64,000 nucleotides of DNA, taken from Entomospira culicis (lineage in GTDB: Bacteria > Spirochaetota > Spirochaetia > WRBN01). The DNA lies in contig NZ_CP118181.1 of the NCBI RefSeq assembly GCF_028748145.1, forward strand, positions 1,550,211-1,614,210, in the 5' to 3' direction. Below, piece after piece: positions 24,773-32,514 of the stretch. The translations under genes and the position numbers were made by a program. Each line of letters opens with the position of its first letter. The stretch's first letter is position 1. The notes below the pieces were generated by a model, which searched no databases, was not told the DNA's origin, and saw only the letters and a list, made by a program, of their open reading frames with translations.

Positions 24773-24802
24773 ATCCTATCGCAGTTTAGGCTATTTAGTC
24801 AA
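24773..24802 (-). promoter_or_regulatory. Promoter of the SH3-like lipoprotein
   Basis: TTGACT (24802-24797), 18-base spacer, TAGGAT (24778-24773), 9 bases before the ATG. It overlaps the last codons of thiZ. Confidence 0.45.
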
Positions 24803-25521
24803 TGCATGGAGAGAACGCCCTGCCCCACCCCCAACGCCTGCCATAAGAGCTTGCGCCGTGCCTCATAATCAAGACCCGTGCTATCGATGCGCTGTAGCTG
24901 GGGGGTCGATTCCTTATGCATCACCCAAATTTCATCGGCTAAATCGAGCGCCTCCTCCACATTATGGGTGATAAAAAAGAGGGTAAATTGCTCTTTTTCT
25001 TGCAGTTCTTTCAAAAAGAGGCGTAATTGTTGGGCGCTGAGCGCGTCGATTGCCGAAAAAGGTTCATCCATCAGCACGATAGGTTGCCGATAGATCATCG
25101 TACGCAAGAGCGCCACGCGTTGGCGCATACCTCCCGATAATTGATTGGGATAGTGATCGGTAAAGTCGGCCAACCCAAACCTCGCCAAGTGCGATTGCAC
25201 CTGCGCATGCGCCTCTTGCTTGCGAACTCCCGACAATACTAAAGGCAACGACGCGTTCTCCAAAAGCGTATACCATGGCAATAAGAGATCTTTCTGTTGC
25301 ATGTAGCTCACCGGAAGTTTATCAACAAGCTCTCCGTCCACCTGCATCCTACCACTATCCAGCGAGAGCAAGCCAGCTAGCAGGTGAAAAAGTACGCTCT
25401 TGCCACAGCCAGAGGCGCCTAAAAGCGCCGTTCGCTTGCTCGAAGGTAAAGAGAAATCGAGCGACCGCAACACCTGATGACCACCAAATGCCTTACTTAA
25501 ACCATTTATCTCGATTGCCAT
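24799..25521 (-). CDS. thiZ: Thiamine-precursor ABC transporter ATPase
   Basis: A 240-residue ABC ATPase of the nitrate/taurine/pyrimidine group. Walker A is GASGCGKSV, Q-loop YMQQKDLLLPW, signature LSGGMRQRVALLR, Walker B IVLMDEPFSAID. With ThiX and ThiY it should import the pyrimidine moiety of thiamine (formyl-aminopyrimidine or HMP). The function is inferred from the TPP riboswitch upstream of the operon. It is 13 bases after thiY. Confidence 0.88.
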   Translation of the reverse strand: MAIEINGLSKAFGGHQVLRSLDFSLPSSKRTALLGASGCGKSVLFHLLAGLLSLDSGRMQVDGELVDKLPVSYMQQKDLLLPWYTLLENASLPLVLSGVRKQEAHAQVQSHLARFGLADFTDHYPNQLSGGMRQRVALLRTMIYRQPIVLMDEPFSAIDALSAQQLRLFLKELQEKEQFTLFFITHNVEEALDLADEIWVMHKESTPQLQRIDSTGLDYEARRKLLWQALGVGQGVLSMH

Positions 25522-25534
25522 GGTGCGCCCCCTC

Positions 25535-26521
25535 TTATTCTAACAACCTATTTGTAAAAATTTCTTCAATAATAATATTTTGCCCATTATTAGGAAGTAA
25601 GCCCTCTGCGCTCGCCCACGCCAAATAGCGGGCAAAGACCTTGCCATCCATGCGACCAAATTGACCATTATGATTAAGATAAAGCGTCGCTAAGTGCACC
25701 GTACTCGCCTCAATCAGCGCCCGATCCATTCCCGACACCGCACTTAAAAAGATCTCGCTCGCCTTACCTGGATTCTCAACAGCATACGCATAGCCACGGG
25801 CAATCGCGCGCATCGCCTTTGCCAGAGCAACCTCTCGCTTGGCGATATTCTCGTCGGTGGAGAGAATCATCGGGGTGTAGAAGTTGAGCGCATCGTCGTA
25901 CTCGCGCACAATAATTTCATTAAGCATAATGCCTTGTAGCTTAGCGGCCAAGAGATCCCAGCCTCTAAAGACCCAGAGATAATCACCCTCCCCATGCACC
26001 AGCGCGTTGAGATCGGCCATCGACCCCGTAGCAGCTAATGTAACTTCGGGATTCTCCACCCCATCGCGTGCCATAATGGCTCGCACCGTAGCGATGTCGT
26101 TGGCGCTACCATAGCTCAAATAGCGCTTGCCCACTAAATCGCTAGGACGCGTAATATTATTCTCTTGCAAAGAGACCAACACCGAATCATTCTCTTGTAA
26201 AATCGCTGCTACAGCCACAATCGGCAAACCTTGGTCGCGTCCAAAAAAGAGCGTACTCTCCCAGCCAATCAACAAATCCACCTGATTAGTCAACAAGAAA
26301 TCTAACCCACCATCTTCAGGCGCTTGCAGAATCGTAAGCTCCACACCCTCTTCCGCCAAGTATCCCATCGCCTGCGCCACATAAAGCCCAATGTGGTTGG
26401 TATTAGGCACCCAATCTAGCATGATGCTCACCTTATCTTTGGATTCTTCATCTTTCGCCTTGCCCGTGCAAGCCACCATGCTAAAAACTATCCCTAAACC
26501 AACAATAAAAAGTCCTCTCAT
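25535..26521 (-). CDS. thiY: Thiamine-precursor binding lipoprotein (NMT1/THI5-like)
   Basis: A 328-residue periplasmic binding protein with a signal peptide ending in lipobox SMVAC (Cys18). The family motif LDWVPNTNHIGLYVA is at residues 35-49. VGKRYLSYGSANDIATV and DYLWVFRGWDL are also typical of ThiY-type pyrimidine binders. It captures the precursor outside the inner membrane. The ATG abuts the thiX stop. Confidence 0.9.
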   Translation of the reverse strand: MRGLFIVGLGIVFSMVACTGKAKDEESKDKVSIMLDWVPNTNHIGLYVAQAMGYLAEEGVELTILQAPEDGGLDFLLTNQVDLLIGWESTLFFGRDQGLPIVAVAAILQENDSVLVSLQENNITRPSDLVGKRYLSYGSANDIATVRAIMARDGVENPEVTLAATGSMADLNALVHGEGDYLWVFRGWDLLAAKLQGIMLNEIIVREYDDALNFYTPMILSTDENIAKREVALAKAMRAIARGYAYAVENPGKASEIFLSAVSGMDRALIEASTVHLATLYLNHNGQFGRMDGKVFARYLAWASAEGLLPNNGQNIIIEEIFTNRLLE

Positions 26522-27301
26522 TTACGTTCTCTCCTCCTTATCTATAAGATGATACCTACGCATCACCCGTTGCTCTAACTGACTACTAATAAAAATAATC
26601 AGTAAACTCAACCCAATGCTCAAGGCGATGGTTGCCATCATCAGGGCGTAATCGTAGCTCTTTCGGCTTCGCAACAACGTATTGCCCAGACCATCTTGCC
26701 CGCCCAGCCATTGTGCCGTAATCACCACCGAGATAAGGTATGTTGCCGAGACGCGCACGCCACTAAAGAAGCCCACCATCGCCATGGGCCAGCGCGCCAT
26801 CCTAAAGATCTGCCAACGACTTGCCCCATAGCTACGCAACAACGCCTCAACTTCGCGATCGCTCTTGGCTAACGCCTGACTAAAGCCCACATAAATCGGG
26901 AAAAAGGTAACCAACACCACAATCACTAGCTTGCTCGTGGTGCCAAAACCAAGCAACAAGAGCACCAGCGTCGTGGTAGCGATAGGCGGACTGGCCTGCC
27001 ATGCATATAATAAGGGATAAAGAAGGCGCGCTAACCAAGGCAACGGCTCTAAAACAATCGCCAAGACAAAAGCAACAACTGCGCCTAAAAAGAGACCAAT
27101 CACCGCTTGATAAAGCGTCTCCACCGTGCCTAGCCACAAGAGCTCACGATGCCTTACCATAGAAGCAACAATAGTAGATGGTTTGGGAAAAATGCGCACC
27201 CAAAGGGTAAAATAGTCGTCGGCAAAGAGTTGCCAAAGAACTAACCACGCAAGATAAAATAGAGCAATCGCAATAGATAAACGAATTTCTTTTATACGCA
27301 T
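26522..27301 (-). CDS. thiX: Thiamine-precursor ABC transporter permease
   Basis: A 259-residue permease with about six spans. The EAA-type loop reads SYGASRWQIFRMARWPMAM near residue 160. It is the first gene of thiXYZ and lies directly behind the TPP riboswitch. GAAGGAAG, the last part of the riboswitch 3' side, also supplies the ribosome-binding site. Confidence 0.9.
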   Translation of the reverse strand: MRIKEIRLSIAIALFYLAWLVLWQLFADDYFTLWVRIFPKPSTIVASMVRHRELLWLGTVETLYQAVIGLFLGAVVAFVLAIVLEPLPWLARLLYPLLYAWQASPPIATTTLVLLLLGFGTTSKLVIVVLVTFFPIYVGFSQALAKSDREVEALLRSYGASRWQIFRMARWPMAMVGFFSGVRVSATYLISVVITAQWLGGQDGLGNTLLRSRKSYDYALMMATIALSIGLSLLIIFISSQLEQRVMRRYHLIDKEERT

Positions 27302-27305
27302 ATGG

Positions 27306-27394
27306 ATGCTTCCTTCGCTGGCATTATCCAGAATCAGGTTCGATGGGTCGATGCATAGGCATCCTCTCAGCTTAACAAGCTCCCCAGCTCCTTT
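27306..27394 (-). ncRNA. TPP riboswitch (THI element)
   Basis: On the minus strand the conserved parts occur in order: GGGGAGCTT, GCTGAGAGGAT, a variable P3 arm, GACCC, GAACCTGATTCTGGATAATG and CCAGCGAAGG. This matches the thiamine pyrophosphate aptamer closely. Because the 3' end contains the purine-rich ribosome-binding site 5-10 bases before the thiX ATG, control is most likely at translation: bound TPP would hide the site. Confidence 0.95.
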
Positions 27395-27436
27395 GATACG
27401 TTTATTCTATCTTAACTGCTCTTTTTTGTCAAGTAA

Positions 27437-27919
27437 CTACTCTTCAATTTGCGTGTTGTTCAACACCCAGCGATAGACGTGTAAGATAAACCAAGAGGCA
27501 AAGAATGCCATAAAGAGCATATACATTGCACCGGCGATACCTGTTACCCAAACCGGTGATAGGTCGGTTTGATAAAGCCACATCACCAAGCCAGCAAAAA
27601 GAGAGGTAACAATCAAAAAGAGAAACCAACCAATTAGCACTAAAGACAAAATACCAATCGCCTGTCCTTTGTACTTAAGCTTCTGTCCGCCTACTTGGGT
27701 ATGCTCTACCAAGTACTTAGCGATGCTGTTGACAATGGTAGGCAAAGCAAAAATCATCACGCCTAAAACGATAAAGGCCATCACCGAGCGGATAAACATG
27801 CTCTCCACCGCACCCGAGACTGCCGAGGCGACCACCGCCGTACCCACAATCAACAACACAGTGCGAATCAACGTCCACATCAAGGCATTTACCGATCCTT
27901 CAAAGCGAAACCCTTTCAT
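27437..27919 (-). CDS. Small DUF898-like membrane protein
   Basis: A 160-residue protein with four predicted spans. It begins KGFRFEGSVN and has an internal HTQVGGQKLKYKGQAIG segment; this F-x-G / Y-x-G module before a span is reminiscent of DUF898 (YjgN-like) proteins and recurs in the next three genes. The similarity is by pattern, not by search. AAGGAGG precedes the ATG, and a long hairpin lies just upstream. Confidence 0.75.
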   Translation of the reverse strand: MKGFRFEGSVNALMWTLIRTVLLIVGTAVVASAVSGAVESMFIRSVMAFIVLGVMIFALPTIVNSIAKYLVEHTQVGGQKLKYKGQAIGILSLVLIGWFLFLIVTSLFAGLVMWLYQTDLSPVWVTGIAGAMYMLFMAFFASWFILHVYRWVLNNTQIEE

Positions 27920-27929
27920 AAGAACCTCC

Positions 27930-27971
27930 TTATATTAAGCGCTAGCAATAACGCTAGCTCACTTAATATAA
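27930..27971 (-). promoter_or_regulatory. Leader hairpin abutting the ribosome-binding site
   Basis: Arms TTATATTAAG and CTTAATATAA (10 of 10), continued by two GCTAGC blocks, enclose a short loop. The 3' arm is followed at once by GGAGG, so the site is next to the stem. The 5' arm contains the -10 hexamer. Confidence 0.6.
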
Positions 27972-27993
27972 TGCAAGGATGAAAAAAGATCAA
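27965..27993 (-). promoter_or_regulatory. Promoter of the 27437 gene
   Basis: TTGATC (27993-27988), 17-base spacer, TATATT (27970-27965). The expected start site is inside the leader hairpin. Confidence 0.6.
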
Positions 27994-28042
27994 CCTCAAT
28001 TACGTAACAAAAAATTGATAGCGAGCAAAACGATTCGCTTAG

Positions 28043-29278
28043 CTATGCCTCAATCTCTTCGGTATTGCGGATAAACCAGCGCCCTAGCAGATAGTACACC
28101 AGCATCTCTAGCGACAAGAATGCCTGTAAGATACCCGCGCCCACCACAAAAATCACGCCCACATTCCAACTAGGTGCGCTCTCATCACTTGCACTGCTCG
28201 CGCCTAACATTCCAGAGAAACTCTCTAGTATCTTTTTGGAGAAACTCTCACTGATCGCATTGCTTACCATCAAGCTCACCATCATTAAGGCGAAGAGACC
28301 CAACCAGATATACCACATCTGCCAAAATTTACCCCTAAAGCGAAATGCTCGCTCGGGTAAGCTCACCTGTTTTGCTAGCGTACTAAAGCTCCACGTAACC
28401 ACGCCTGCCATCAACACCGTGAGTGCAAGATAGAGCGGCCAAGCAAGACCCAGTAGCGTCGCAGAGCTATTCTCTGCCAATGGCGATAAATCAATTTTGT
28501 CCGACTCAAATGATTGATATGCCCACACACTCCATAACCAACTAATCACAATAGCTCCCACGTAGTAGAGTGTCATCATCGGGACAAAGCTAAACCATTT
28601 ACCGCGATACGCAAGCAGTTGCACGCCCCCACCATGGCTCGTTTTGCTTCCATAGTAGCCCACCACCCGATGCATCACCACCGCATACACTATCGCTAAA
28701 AGAAAAAGAAAGGGCATCATACGGAAATGAAGCGCCGAAAAGATACCCTGTGCATTTACATCCTCGAAATTGCCACTGGTGATAGTGTCCAATACCCAGC
28801 CCTGAATGTCATAGAACATAAAGCCCATCACTAATCCCACCACAACTTGCAATGCCACGTAATGGATTGCCAAGTAACGCCAAGAACCACCTAGTGTAAA
28901 GCGCTCGCCCTTGAACGTGCTCTCTTTTGCAAAGTAACGCGCTTGGGTAATCATCTGCCATGCCCACGCCACGCTATAGGCAAGAAACAGTACAAAAAAG
29001 AGCGCCCCCAGTAGCCAGAGGTGCCGTTGTAGTGCGCCCTCATCGATACCCATATACTTCATGGCGTTGCTCACCATGTTGGTATCTAAATCTAGCCCAC
29101 CCCGACGCGCAACATACACACTATAGCGCATGCTCAACCACATCACCAACTGCGATCCCTTAGGCAACAAGACAAACAACACCACCGCCAGCATCCCCAC
29201 CAGCGAAACCCACCGCGCCGTCATCGCAACACGTTGACGCTGTAAAAACGCAATAAAATTCCCTTCAAACTTTAACAA
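28043..29278 (-). CDS. Modular multi-spanning membrane protein (DUF898-like)
   Basis: A 411-residue protein with about eight spans arranged as repeated units, each opened by a soluble F-x-G style motif: MLKFEGNFIAF at the start, STFKGERFTLGGSWRYL near residue 140, GGGVQLLAYRGKWFSF near 228 and RAFRFRGKFWQMW near 323. This fits three or four DUF898-like modules. The start is TTG with an AGGAG site. It is one of four related adjacent genes. The function is unknown; a channel or transporter role would be a guess. Confidence 0.75.
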   Translation of the reverse strand: MLKFEGNFIAFLQRQRVAMTARWVSLVGMLAVVLFVLLPKGSQLVMWLSMRYSVYVARRGGLDLDTNMVSNAMKYMGIDEGALQRHLWLLGALFFVLFLAYSVAWAWQMITQARYFAKESTFKGERFTLGGSWRYLAIHYVALQVVVGLVMGFMFYDIQGWVLDTITSGNFEDVNAQGIFSALHFRMMPFLFLLAIVYAVVMHRVVGYYGSKTSHGGGVQLLAYRGKWFSFVPMMTLYYVGAIVISWLWSVWAYQSFESDKIDLSPLAENSSATLLGLAWPLYLALTVLMAGVVTWSFSTLAKQVSLPERAFRFRGKFWQMWYIWLGLFALMMVSLMVSNAISESFSKKILESFSGMLGASSASDESAPSWNVGVIFVVGAGILQAFLSLEMLVYYLLGRWFIRNTEEIEA

Positions 29279-29310
29279 CTCTCTTCTCCTATTCTATTGA
29301 GATATTAAAT

Positions 29311-30396
29311 TTATTCTAAACCTAAATCCTCTTCCTTATTTGGTAACTCTTCATAATGAATCCCTCGAATCACCCATCTTATCATGACATACGTCCACCA
29401 AGCATAAGTCAGTATAAAAAACCCCGTAACCAAAACGACCGTCAACATCACTGCCTCTGTCAAAATCGGGATAATCACGACGATAATCAGCACCGACCCA
29501 AAGACAATCGAGAGCCCCATAAACTTAAACAGCGTCTTGACCCCCGTCCGAAATGCTAACGGGCGCTCACCATAGGTAATTAAACCCAGTATCTGCCGCG
29601 TAAAGAGACGAATTAAGAAGGGGCTAGCAATCACAACCACCATAAACATAAGGGCAAATATCCCTTCATGCACCATCTCTTGAAAGACACCCACCAGATA
29701 GAATGGCGTTAAGTAGAGGCTGTAAATTTTGAGGATCTGGAGAAATTTGCCCTCATAGACAAAATCTTCTGGACTCTCCTCTACCACCAAGTGAGGCACG
29801 CCCCACTCTAGCCACTTATGCAAAACAAACGCACTGGTGATGACTTGTATCACGGTAGAGGCGACTCCTGCCACCAAGGTAAGTGTCTCAATCTTCAAAG
29901 ACTTGAGCTCCTCAAATGGTGCTCCAACTAATCCTGCTAAGATATTCACCCCAAGTGCGATAAAAAAGAGTTTGATGAGCCCACCCATGCGCCCATCAAA
30001 ACGCACCCGATGCCGACCCAGCCTGCTAACATCGGCAAAGTAGCGCATCAGCGTACGGTAGTACCACGACAAAACAAAAGGCGAGGCAACCAGCATCAGC
30101 AAGATAAAGAGAAAAATCGCACCAAAAAGCCCAAGGAAAGCAAGGAGCGTCGACTCATCCATATCTGCAAATAACTCTTCGAAATACGCCTGCAACGCCT
30201 CAGGATTCTCCTCCACCGTAGACAAGGCGATCCAAAAATCCTCCTCAAAAAGAATCGCAGGCTCTAAGCCCGCCGTCTTCAGCGCGCCAAAAACCATCAT
30301 CGCTCCCACTAGCACTAACCCAAAATTCAATAGTAAAAAACCACTCATCCGCTTGAGGTATCCACCAAACGTCCCATTAAACGCTACTGCTTGCAC
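29311..30396 (-). CDS. Modular multi-spanning membrane protein, duplicate copy A
   Basis: A 361-residue protein starting MQAVAFNGTFGGYLKRMSGF (GTG start). F-x-G style modules recur at RFDGRMGGLIKLF (near 130), DFVYEGKFLQILK (near 212) and PLAFRTGVKTLFK (near 278), each before paired spans. It is a clear paralog of the 30574 gene: the first 20 residues are identical and the rest is diverged but collinear. Copy A has an extra acidic insert (ENPEALQAYFEELFADMDES) and a longer C-terminus (PNKEEDLGLE). Confidence 0.78.
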   Translation of the reverse strand: MQAVAFNGTFGGYLKRMSGFLLLNFGLVLVGAMMVFGALKTAGLEPAILFEEDFWIALSTVEENPEALQAYFEELFADMDESTLLAFLGLFGAIFLFILLMLVASPFVLSWYYRTLMRYFADVSRLGRHRVRFDGRMGGLIKLFFIALGVNILAGLVGAPFEELKSLKIETLTLVAGVASTVIQVITSAFVLHKWLEWGVPHLVVEESPEDFVYEGKFLQILKIYSLYLTPFYLVGVFQEMVHEGIFALMFMVVVIASPFLIRLFTRQILGLITYGERPLAFRTGVKTLFKFMGLSIVFGSVLIIVVIIPILTEAVMLTVVLVTGFFILTYAWWTYVMIRWVIRGIHYEELPNKEEDLGLE

Positions 30397-30524
30397 GCTA
30401 TCACCATCCTTGTTCTATATTATACGTAATTTTTTTACTATAGCATACATGGTTCACCCAAATTGTGCAAGTAGACAAAAGCGATCGTTTCATCTATACT
30501 CTAACCTATGAGAATCTGGATTAC
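30341..30524. repeat. 184-base direct repeat, copy A (with 31475-31658)
   Basis: It covers the first codons of copy A, the intergenic region and the first 17 bases of an rfbD-like frame. It is nearly identical to, and the same length as, 31475-31658, which spans the start of copy B through the true rfbD start. Confidence 0.85.
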
Positions 30525-30558
30525 CAAGGAGAATATCCCATTATCCACCCTGCTCTAA
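30508..30558 (+). pseudogene. Relic of the rfbD 5' end
   Basis: ATGAGAATCTGGATTAC is identical to the start of rfbD at 31642, with the same upstream TAGACA-17-TATACT promoter 7 bases before the ATG. After codon 5 the sequence departs and the frame stops after 16 codons. It marks the end of the duplicated segment and could still be transcribed. Confidence 0.8.
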
Positions 30559-30573
30559 GGCAAGATCCTCATC

Positions 30574-31530
30574 TTAATTGGGAATCTCTTCATAATGAAT
30601 TGCCATTATTGTCCAACGCGCAATCGCATAGATCCACCAAGCAAGAATCAACGTAGAAAAAGGGAAGACAACGAAGATATCTAATACCGCCTCACCCACT
30701 AATAGAATAAATATTACGATTGGGATAAAGATAACAACCGCATAGATAACCGTGAAACCAATCAAACGAAAAGGCCACTTAATGCTCGCTCTCCATTGCA
30801 AAGGATGCTTACCATACGTAATAAAACCAACCATCTGCTTCATTACCCAATACAGTAAGAAGATACCGCCCATCACAAGCATCAAAAACCTAAGGATCGG
30901 TGTGGCCTCTGCAAAAAAGAGATTATTAATAATATGGAATGGCATTACGTAGAGCGCATAAATGTTAAAAATATCTCCCCATCTTCCTCGATAAACCAAA
31001 TCCGCCGAACTCTTCTCGACCACCACATGCGATACGCCCCACTTTAACCAATAATGGGAGAGCGTAGCACCCAATATCGCTTGTGTCATGGCAGAGAAAA
31101 TTTTTGCTGAAACAGGGAACGCAGCAAACGGTGCTACGACTAATCCTGCCAAGATATTCATCCCCCAAATAATAAAGTAGATCCTAATCAACCCACCCAT
31201 GCGCCCAGTAAAACGTAACTGATGCCGATCCAGCCTGCTTGCACCCACAAAATAGCGTATTAATATGTGGTAAAACCACGAAAACGAGAACGGTAAAACC
31301 ACGAATGACCATAATATCAAGAGCAAGAGGAGCGTCGGATTCTCCCTTAGTGTAGCCAAAGCGGTTAAAATATTCTCCTTAAAAATAATCGAAGGCTCTA
31401 AGCCCGCCGTCTTCAATGCCCCAAAAACCATCATCGCTATCACCAACGGTAACCCAACCCCCAGCAACACAAAGCCACTCATCCGCTTGAGGTACCCACC
31501 AAACGTCCCATTAAACGCTACTGCTTGCAC
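30574..31530 (-). CDS. Modular multi-spanning membrane protein, duplicate copy B
   Basis: A 318-residue paralog of the 29311 product with the same GTG start and N-terminus, then RFTGRMGGLIRIYF, DLVYRGRWGDIFNIY and PLQWRASIKWPFRLIG modules ahead of membrane spans. It ends ARWTIMAIHYEEIPN, matching IRWVIRGIHYEELPN of copy A. It is transcribed away from rfbD from the shared intergenic region. Function unknown. Confidence 0.78.
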   Translation of the reverse strand: MQAVAFNGTFGGYLKRMSGFVLLGVGLPLVIAMMVFGALKTAGLEPSIIFKENILTALATLRENPTLLLLLILWSFVVLPFSFSWFYHILIRYFVGASRLDRHQLRFTGRMGGLIRIYFIIWGMNILAGLVVAPFAAFPVSAKIFSAMTQAILGATLSHYWLKWGVSHVVVEKSSADLVYRGRWGDIFNIYALYVMPFHIINNLFFAEATPILRFLMLVMGGIFLLYWVMKQMVGFITYGKHPLQWRASIKWPFRLIGFTVIYAVVIFIPIVIFILLVGEAVLDIFVVFPFSTLILAWWIYAIARWTIMAIHYEEIPN

Positions 31531-31658
31531 GCTATCACCATCCTTGCCTTATATTATAAATCATTTTTTTACTATAGCATACATGGTTCACCCAAATTGT
31601 GCAAGTAGACAAAAGCGATCGTTTCGTCTATACTCTAGCCTATGAGAATCTGGATTAC
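31475..31658. repeat. 184-base direct repeat, copy B
   Basis: Partner of 30341-30524. This is the intact arrangement: start of copy B, intergenic region, start of rfbD. Confidence 0.85.
31606..31634 (+). promoter_or_regulatory. rfbD promoter (leaderless type)
   Basis: TAGACA (31606-31611), 17-base spacer, TATACT (31629-31634), then 7 bases to ATG 31642. There is no room for a ribosome-binding site. Confidence 0.65.
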
Positions 31659-32514
31659 GGGGGGAGATGGACAACTGGCACGCGCGCTTCAACAACAACT
31701 GCGTCGGCAAGGTGCGCCCTTTGTTGCCACCAACCGTAGCCAGTGCGACCTCACCGATTATCGAGCGGTTGAGAGCTTTGCCCAACAATATCGCCCCACG
31801 CTCATTATGCACACCGCCGCCTTTACTCATGTCGACCACGCCCAGCAACACCAGCTCCAAGCCCTTGCCGACAACCTTCTCGCCACGCGTAATCTTACAC
31901 ACATCGCGCAACCCTACCGCGCTAAAATTGTCTTCTTCTCTACCGACTATCTCTTTGACGGCACCAAAACCTCGCCCTACCTCGAGAGCGACTGCCCCAA
32001 TCCTCTACAATGGTACGGTAAGAGCAAGCTCCTCGCCGAAGAGACCTTGCACCCCTACCCAAATCATCTGATTATTCGTCTATCGTGGCTCTACAGCACC
32101 GAGCGTGGATTTGTCCTGGCCATTCTCCAACAACTGCGCACCCAAGCCAGCCTCACCGTGGTAGAGAATGAAATCGGCACGCCCACCTTTATCCCGTCTA
32201 TTGTACCAGCAATTCTTGCCCTTGCCACTAGCCCAGCCGTGGGTACGTATCATCTTGCCAGCGAAGGAGAGGTAAGCCGATATCACCTCGCCCAGGCCAC
32301 CCTTAACCTCGCGCAACGTAGCCTCAACCTATCCACCAACCCCACCCTCCACGCCATCACCAGCCATGCCTATCGACAAGCCCATCCACAGACCGCCACA
32401 CGCCCCATCTACAGCCCATTAGCCAGCCAAAAAGCCAAACAAACCCTCGCCATCGCCTCGCTAGGCACGTGGCAGGAACACTTGCAAGCATTTTTTCGAC
32501 ACTATCTTTTATAA
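31642..32514 (+). CDS. rfbD: dTDP-4-dehydrorhamnose reductase
   Basis: A 290-residue SDR enzyme for the last step of dTDP-L-rhamnose synthesis. The NAD(P)H motif is ITGGDGQLA (residues 5-13); HTAAFTHVDHAQ, VFFSTDYLFDG and the catalytic YGKSK near 123 follow. Its stop codon directly abuts the stop of the convergent rfbC. RfbA and RfbB are not in the window. Confidence 0.92.
   Translation: MRIWITGGDGQLARALQQQLRRQGAPFVATNRSQCDLTDYRAVESFAQQYRPTLIMHTAAFTHVDHAQQHQLQALADNLLATRNLTHIAQPYRAKIVFFSTDYLFDGTKTSPYLESDCPNPLQWYGKSKLLAEETLHPYPNHLIIRLSWLYSTERGFVLAILQQLRTQASLTVVENEIGTPTFIPSIVPAILALATSPAVGTYHLASEGEVSRYHLAQATLNLAQRSLNLSTNPTLHAITSHAYRQAHPQTATRPIYSPLASQKAKQTLAIASLGTWQEHLQAFFRHYLL

What the first reader, a model, noticed from the sequence alone, without database searches (positions are those of the whole stretch)
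29311..31660. Tandem duplication that copied the start of rfbD
Two paralogous membrane genes lie in tandem. The 184 bases covering the 5' end of each gene, the intergenic region and the first 17 bases of rfbD are nearly identical (30341-30524 and 31475-31658), while the rest of the coding regions has diverged strongly. The relic keeps the rfbD promoter and a 16-codon frame. The mismatch between old coding divergence and a fresh 5' segment points to gene conversion or strong selection on the divergent promoter region.
Basis: seen in the sequence. Interest (0 to 1): 0.6.

Follow-up and report, generated by a model that had tools for sequence, protein, structure and literature searches.

The report
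Duplicated membrane gene with converted front
A membrane-protein gene was duplicated side by side together with the promoter and first few codons of its neighbour rfbD; the two copies have since drifted far apart except for their front ends, which look as if one was recently overwritten by the other, an ordinary kind of DNA copying event (gene conversion).

Summary
30341-30524 and 31475-31658 match at 175 of 184 bases. They cover the first 18-19 codons of two tandem membrane genes, their promoter region, the divergent rfbD promoter and the first 17 nt of rfbD. The rest of the two genes is 69% identical (about 45% in protein), with dS about 1.0. The edge is sharp: a step at 30341 (support 30337-30347) fits better than a smooth decline. 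The 184 bp occurs nowhere else in the genome.

Best explanation: an older tandem duplication of gene plus divergent promoter plus rfbD start, then gene conversion (recent, or repeated) from the rfbD-proximal copy, limited to the 5' block. A refinement: 6 of the 9 differences fall within 16 bp around the membrane gene's -10 box (P about 0.0007), so the tract is a mosaic. Purifying selection alone is less likely, because silent sites and the rfbD stub are also conserved, but it cannot be excluded: no close relative carrying this locus was held (the one same-family genome has another gene beside rfbD). Ordinary genome evolution; low interest.

The parts
29311..30396 (-). Gene A: 361-aa membrane protein, weak DUF898-like, left copy of the tandem pair (GTG start)
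   Evidence: ORF; Pfam DUF898 15.9 bits, below cut-off 28; 45% identical to B by tblastn
30574..31530 (-). Gene B: 318-aa paralogue, right copy, next to rfbD; shortened by an early TAA after which A-like sequence (DEDLALE) continues to about 30553
   Evidence: ORF; alignment past the stop
30341..30524 (.). Left copy of the 184-bp near-identical block (A codons 1-18/19, A promoter region, relic rfbD promoter, 17 nt of rfbD)
   Evidence: 175/184 identical to 31475-31658; sharp edge
31475..31658 (.). Right copy of the block, presumed donor because it holds the intact rfbD
30413..30428 (-). 16-bp patch with 6 of the 9 differences, around the conserved -10 box TATAAT at 30424-30419; counterpart 31547-31562
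   Evidence: clustering P = 0.00066
30472..30500 (+). Relic rfbD promoter-like site TAGACA-N17-TATACT
30508..30558 (+). Relic rfbD start: 17 nt of rfbD (30508-30524) running into a 16-codon frame, stop included
31606..31634 (+). Promoter-like site of the real rfbD; -10 ends 7 nt before the ATG, so a leaderless mRNA is predicted
   Evidence: leaderless start is inference
31642..32514 (+). rfbD/rmlD, dTDP-4-dehydrorhamnose reductase, intact
   Evidence: TIGR01214 245.1 bits, cut-off 224.05

Best explanation
An ancestral membrane gene divergent from rfbD was duplicated in tandem as a unit running from near its stop codon to the first codons of rfbD, giving genes A and B with a truncated rfbD stub between them (shown by the anatomy). 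The bodies diverged to dS about 1. Later, homologous recombination copied the 5' block of the rfbD-proximal copy (B 5' end, promoter, rfbD start) over the same part of the A unit without crossover, that is, gene conversion (inferred). The tract stopped at 30341, where the next 17 bp match poorly, and near 30524, where homology to rfbD ends. A 16-bp patch around the -10 box was left unconverted or changed afterwards. There may have been one event or repeated homogenisation; the right-to-left direction is inferred. The relic probably has no function of its own; A keeps its promoter.
For: 175/184 identical against 68.6% elsewhere, with a step at 30341. Body dS 1.035 over 298 codons, while codons 1-19 have 2 silent differences in 13.7 sites and no amino-acid change. 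The 94 bp 30431-30524 have 2 differences; P about 4e-13 even at the body's mean nucleotide divergence. The 17-nt rfbD stub is unchanged (0/17). Homology between A and B runs through the whole gene and past B's stop codon, so the original duplication was of the whole gene. No further copy of the block in the genome. The genome has recA.
Against: No related genome with A and B was available, so timing and direction are not tested. A single recent event and continuous homogenisation cannot be told apart. The 6-base patch needs an extra assumption (mosaic repair or later change). A 184-bp tract is short, though not out of line with the 200-300 bp means that a review cites for yeast and rodents (PMC3924818); no bacterial figure was found there.
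Confidence: 0.7

Rival explanations
1. Purifying selection: the 5' block of both units is a dense regulatory region (promoter, operator, start region, possibly an antisense promoter reading into gene B) held nearly constant since the duplication, with no conversion.
For: The block contains two divergent promoter-like elements; TATAAT, the SD-like AAGGA and the GTG start are identical in both copies; the relic promoter could make RNA antisense to gene B.
Against: It would need constraint at nearly every base, including silent codon sites, spacer and a truncated rfbD stub, and yet tolerate 6 changes in 16 bp beside the -10 box. The edge is abrupt.
Confidence: 0.13
2. A and B were already old tandem paralogues with an ordinary short spacer; a recent one-sided copying event (template switch or end-joining at the far side) placed B's 5' end, the divergent promoter and 17 nt of rfbD in front of A, replacing A's old start.
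For: Explains the single young age of the whole block and the abrupt junction at 30524 without a relic kept from an old duplication; genes A and C are only 32 bp apart, so a short spacer is plausible.
Against: Needs one homologous and one non-homologous end. The diverged patch inside the block suggests that a copy of the promoter was there before.
Confidence: 0.14
3. Assembly artefact or falsely duplicated contig stretch.
For: None seen; reads were not available.
Against: The copies differ at 9 positions and sit in different, strongly diverged genes; a 184-bp repeat is shorter than usual long reads. If the genome is Entomospira culicis, it was assembled from Illumina and Nanopore reads of 1.2-1.9 kb mean length (PMC11636382).
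Confidence: 0.03

Closest known systems
Interlocus (ectopic) gene conversion between tandem paralogues
   Same: A sharply bounded tract of near identity, silent sites included, in otherwise diverged duplicates
   Different: The tract covers the divergent promoter and a fragment of the neighbouring gene, and is a mosaic; detected from one genome only
Tandem gene duplication with truncated flanking gene
   Same: One copy carries a broken-off start of the gene next door
   Different: The stub is far better preserved than the duplicated gene itself
DUF898 (PF05987) membrane proteins
   Same: Weak profile matches in A, B and the next gene 28043-29278; gene 27437-27919 passes the cut-off (29.6 bits)
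   Different: A and B score 15.9 and 13.6 bits, below the 28-bit cut-off

Membership tests
Gene conversion between paralogues | Local excess of identity with sharp edge over diverged background | tested here: met
   Step model at 30341 and segment shuffles
Gene conversion between paralogues | Silent and non-functional sites homogenised too | tested here: met
   Codons 1-19: 2 silent changes in 13.7 sites against dS 1.0; rfbD stub 0/17; 30431-30524 2/94
Gene conversion between paralogues | Copies more alike within a genome than to orthologues in sister species | not testable with these tools
   No held genome of the genus besides its own; no orthologues found
Tandem duplication of a unit | Homology over the full unit in the same order and orientation | tested here: met
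   A/B alignment from start to beyond B's stop, plus promoter and rfbD start
Tandem duplication of a unit | Identifiable junction with microhomology | tested here: inconclusive
   GGAGA/GAGAT resemblance at the junction is no better than shuffles (67 of 200)
DUF898 | Score over the curated cut-off | tested here: not met
   A 15.9, B 13.6 bits, cut-off 28

The most novel reading that the evidence does not exclude
The relic rfbD promoter is kept because it is used: it fires a leaderless transcript that runs antisense through gene B's 3' end, so that A, B and rfbD are co-regulated through two copies of one divergent promoter, and conversion or selection keeps the copies matched.
Probability: 0.06. 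Interest if true: 0.5.

Novelty: new member of a known kind. Interest (0 to 1): 0.2.

Why it matters
It is a clean, small example of how a tandem pair can diverge in its proteins while its start and divergent promoter stay homogenised, and of a neighbouring gene's start being carried along. It matters mainly as a caution: age estimates from one part of a duplicate can be wrong by an order of magnitude.

Tried and rejected
Microhomology (GAGAT) at the duplication junction: not significant. Further dispersed copies of the 184-bp block as a mobile or regulatory element: none in the genome. Orthologues of A/B in 60 relatives, in GTDB contigs and in plasmids: none; a GTDB scan with RfbD gave only a distant homologue. 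Two DUF898-like genes of the same-family genome G001 (L062, L063): not close to A/B and not next to rfbD. Smooth decline of identity: worse fit than a step. Rfam match at the block: none. Literature search for the same pattern in bacteria gave no direct precedent in the held library.

Full report
Observation. Window 30341-30524 and 31475-31658 are 175/184 identical. The differences are at 30361, 30413-30415, 30425, 30426, 30428, 30492 and 30504. The block comprises A codons 1-18/19, the spacer, the divergent rfbD promoter and 17 nt of rfbD. The remaining aligned part of the unit is 68.6% identical. Segment scores exceed all of 5000 shuffles (139 against at most 66).

Edge. A one-step model places the left edge at 30341, with a support range of 30337-30347, and is preferred to logistic and quadratic smooth declines (lnL -593.2, -603.7, -595.2). 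In the 17 bp before the edge 10 bases differ. A two-step model adds a milder step at 29913 (64%, then 76%, then 95%). The intermediate stretch may be a conserved protein region or an older tract; this was not separated.

Genes. A (29311-30396, -) and B (30574-31530, -) are membrane proteins about 45% identical with weak DUF898 scores below cut-off. Two more DUF898-like genes follow at 28043-29278 and 27437-27919. rfbD at 31642-32514 is an intact RmlD and is followed by convergent rfbC (RmlC). B ends earlier than A: after its TAA, A-like sequence (DEDLALE against EEDLGLE) continues. So the homology spans the full gene, and the duplication unit was the whole gene plus promoter plus rfbD start.

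Age contrast. A Nei-Gojobori count over codons 20-361 gives dS 1.04 and dN 0.41. Codons 1-19 have 2 silent differences in 13.7 sites and no replacement. Of 138 body codons with the same residue 87 are identical, against 55 expected at saturation, so the duplication is old but not fully saturated. In 30431-30524 there are 2 differences in 94 bp, far fewer than expected at the body's divergence (P about 4e-13).

Inner structure. Six of nine differences lie in 16 bp (P = 0.00066) flanking the conserved TATAAT of the membrane gene promoter (30424-30419 and 31558-31553). The patch is 10/16 identical, like the unconverted body. It may be an unconverted island in a mosaic tract, or promoter change after conversion. 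If it is an island, a diverged copy of the promoter was already in front of A, which favours old duplication followed by conversion over recent insertion. This step is inference.

rfbD start. TAGACA-N17-TATACT is found in both copies. The number of promoter-like sites in the region (5) is near the shuffle mean (4.7), so the match alone is weak; its position just before the ATG is what supports it. The -10 ends 7 nt before the ATG and no Shine-Dalgarno sequence fits, so rfbD is probably read from a leaderless mRNA (inference). The relic frame MRIWITKENIPLSTLL* has 16 codons, and nothing suggests that it is used.

Relatives. The only held genome of the genus is its own. The single same-family genome has rfbD and rfbC in the same convergent arrangement, but with an rsmG-like gene upstream (my reading of the translation) and no A/B homologue there. 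Scans of GTDB contigs and plasmids found none. The genome size and contig number (1,769,585 bases, 4 contigs) and window GC 47% fit Entomospira culicis (1.76 Mb, chromosome plus three plasmids, 45.8% GC; PMC11636382). That identification is an inference.

Verdict. Gene conversion after an older tandem duplication is the best explanation (0.7). Constraint alone (0.13) and a recent one-sided copying event (0.14) remain possible because the between-species test could not be run. It is a tidy example of a known process.

Noticed in passing
window 27293-27396 (-): TPP riboswitch (Rfam RF00059, 67.5 bits) directly upstream of a three-gene ABC-transporter-like set at 24799-27301 (- strand); likely a thiamine-precursor uptake operon.
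   Followed up: no
window 30553-30576: Gene B has lost its last codons to an early TAA, yet the A-like C-terminal coding sequence persists after the stop (DEDLALE), suggesting that the stop is fairly recent.
   Followed up: partly
window 27437-31530: Four consecutive DUF898-like membrane genes on the - strand; only A and B are close paralogues, the others are very distant.
   Followed up: partly
window 31629-31642: rfbD has a -10-like TATACT 7 nt before its ATG and no Shine-Dalgarno sequence: predicted leaderless mRNA.
   Followed up: no
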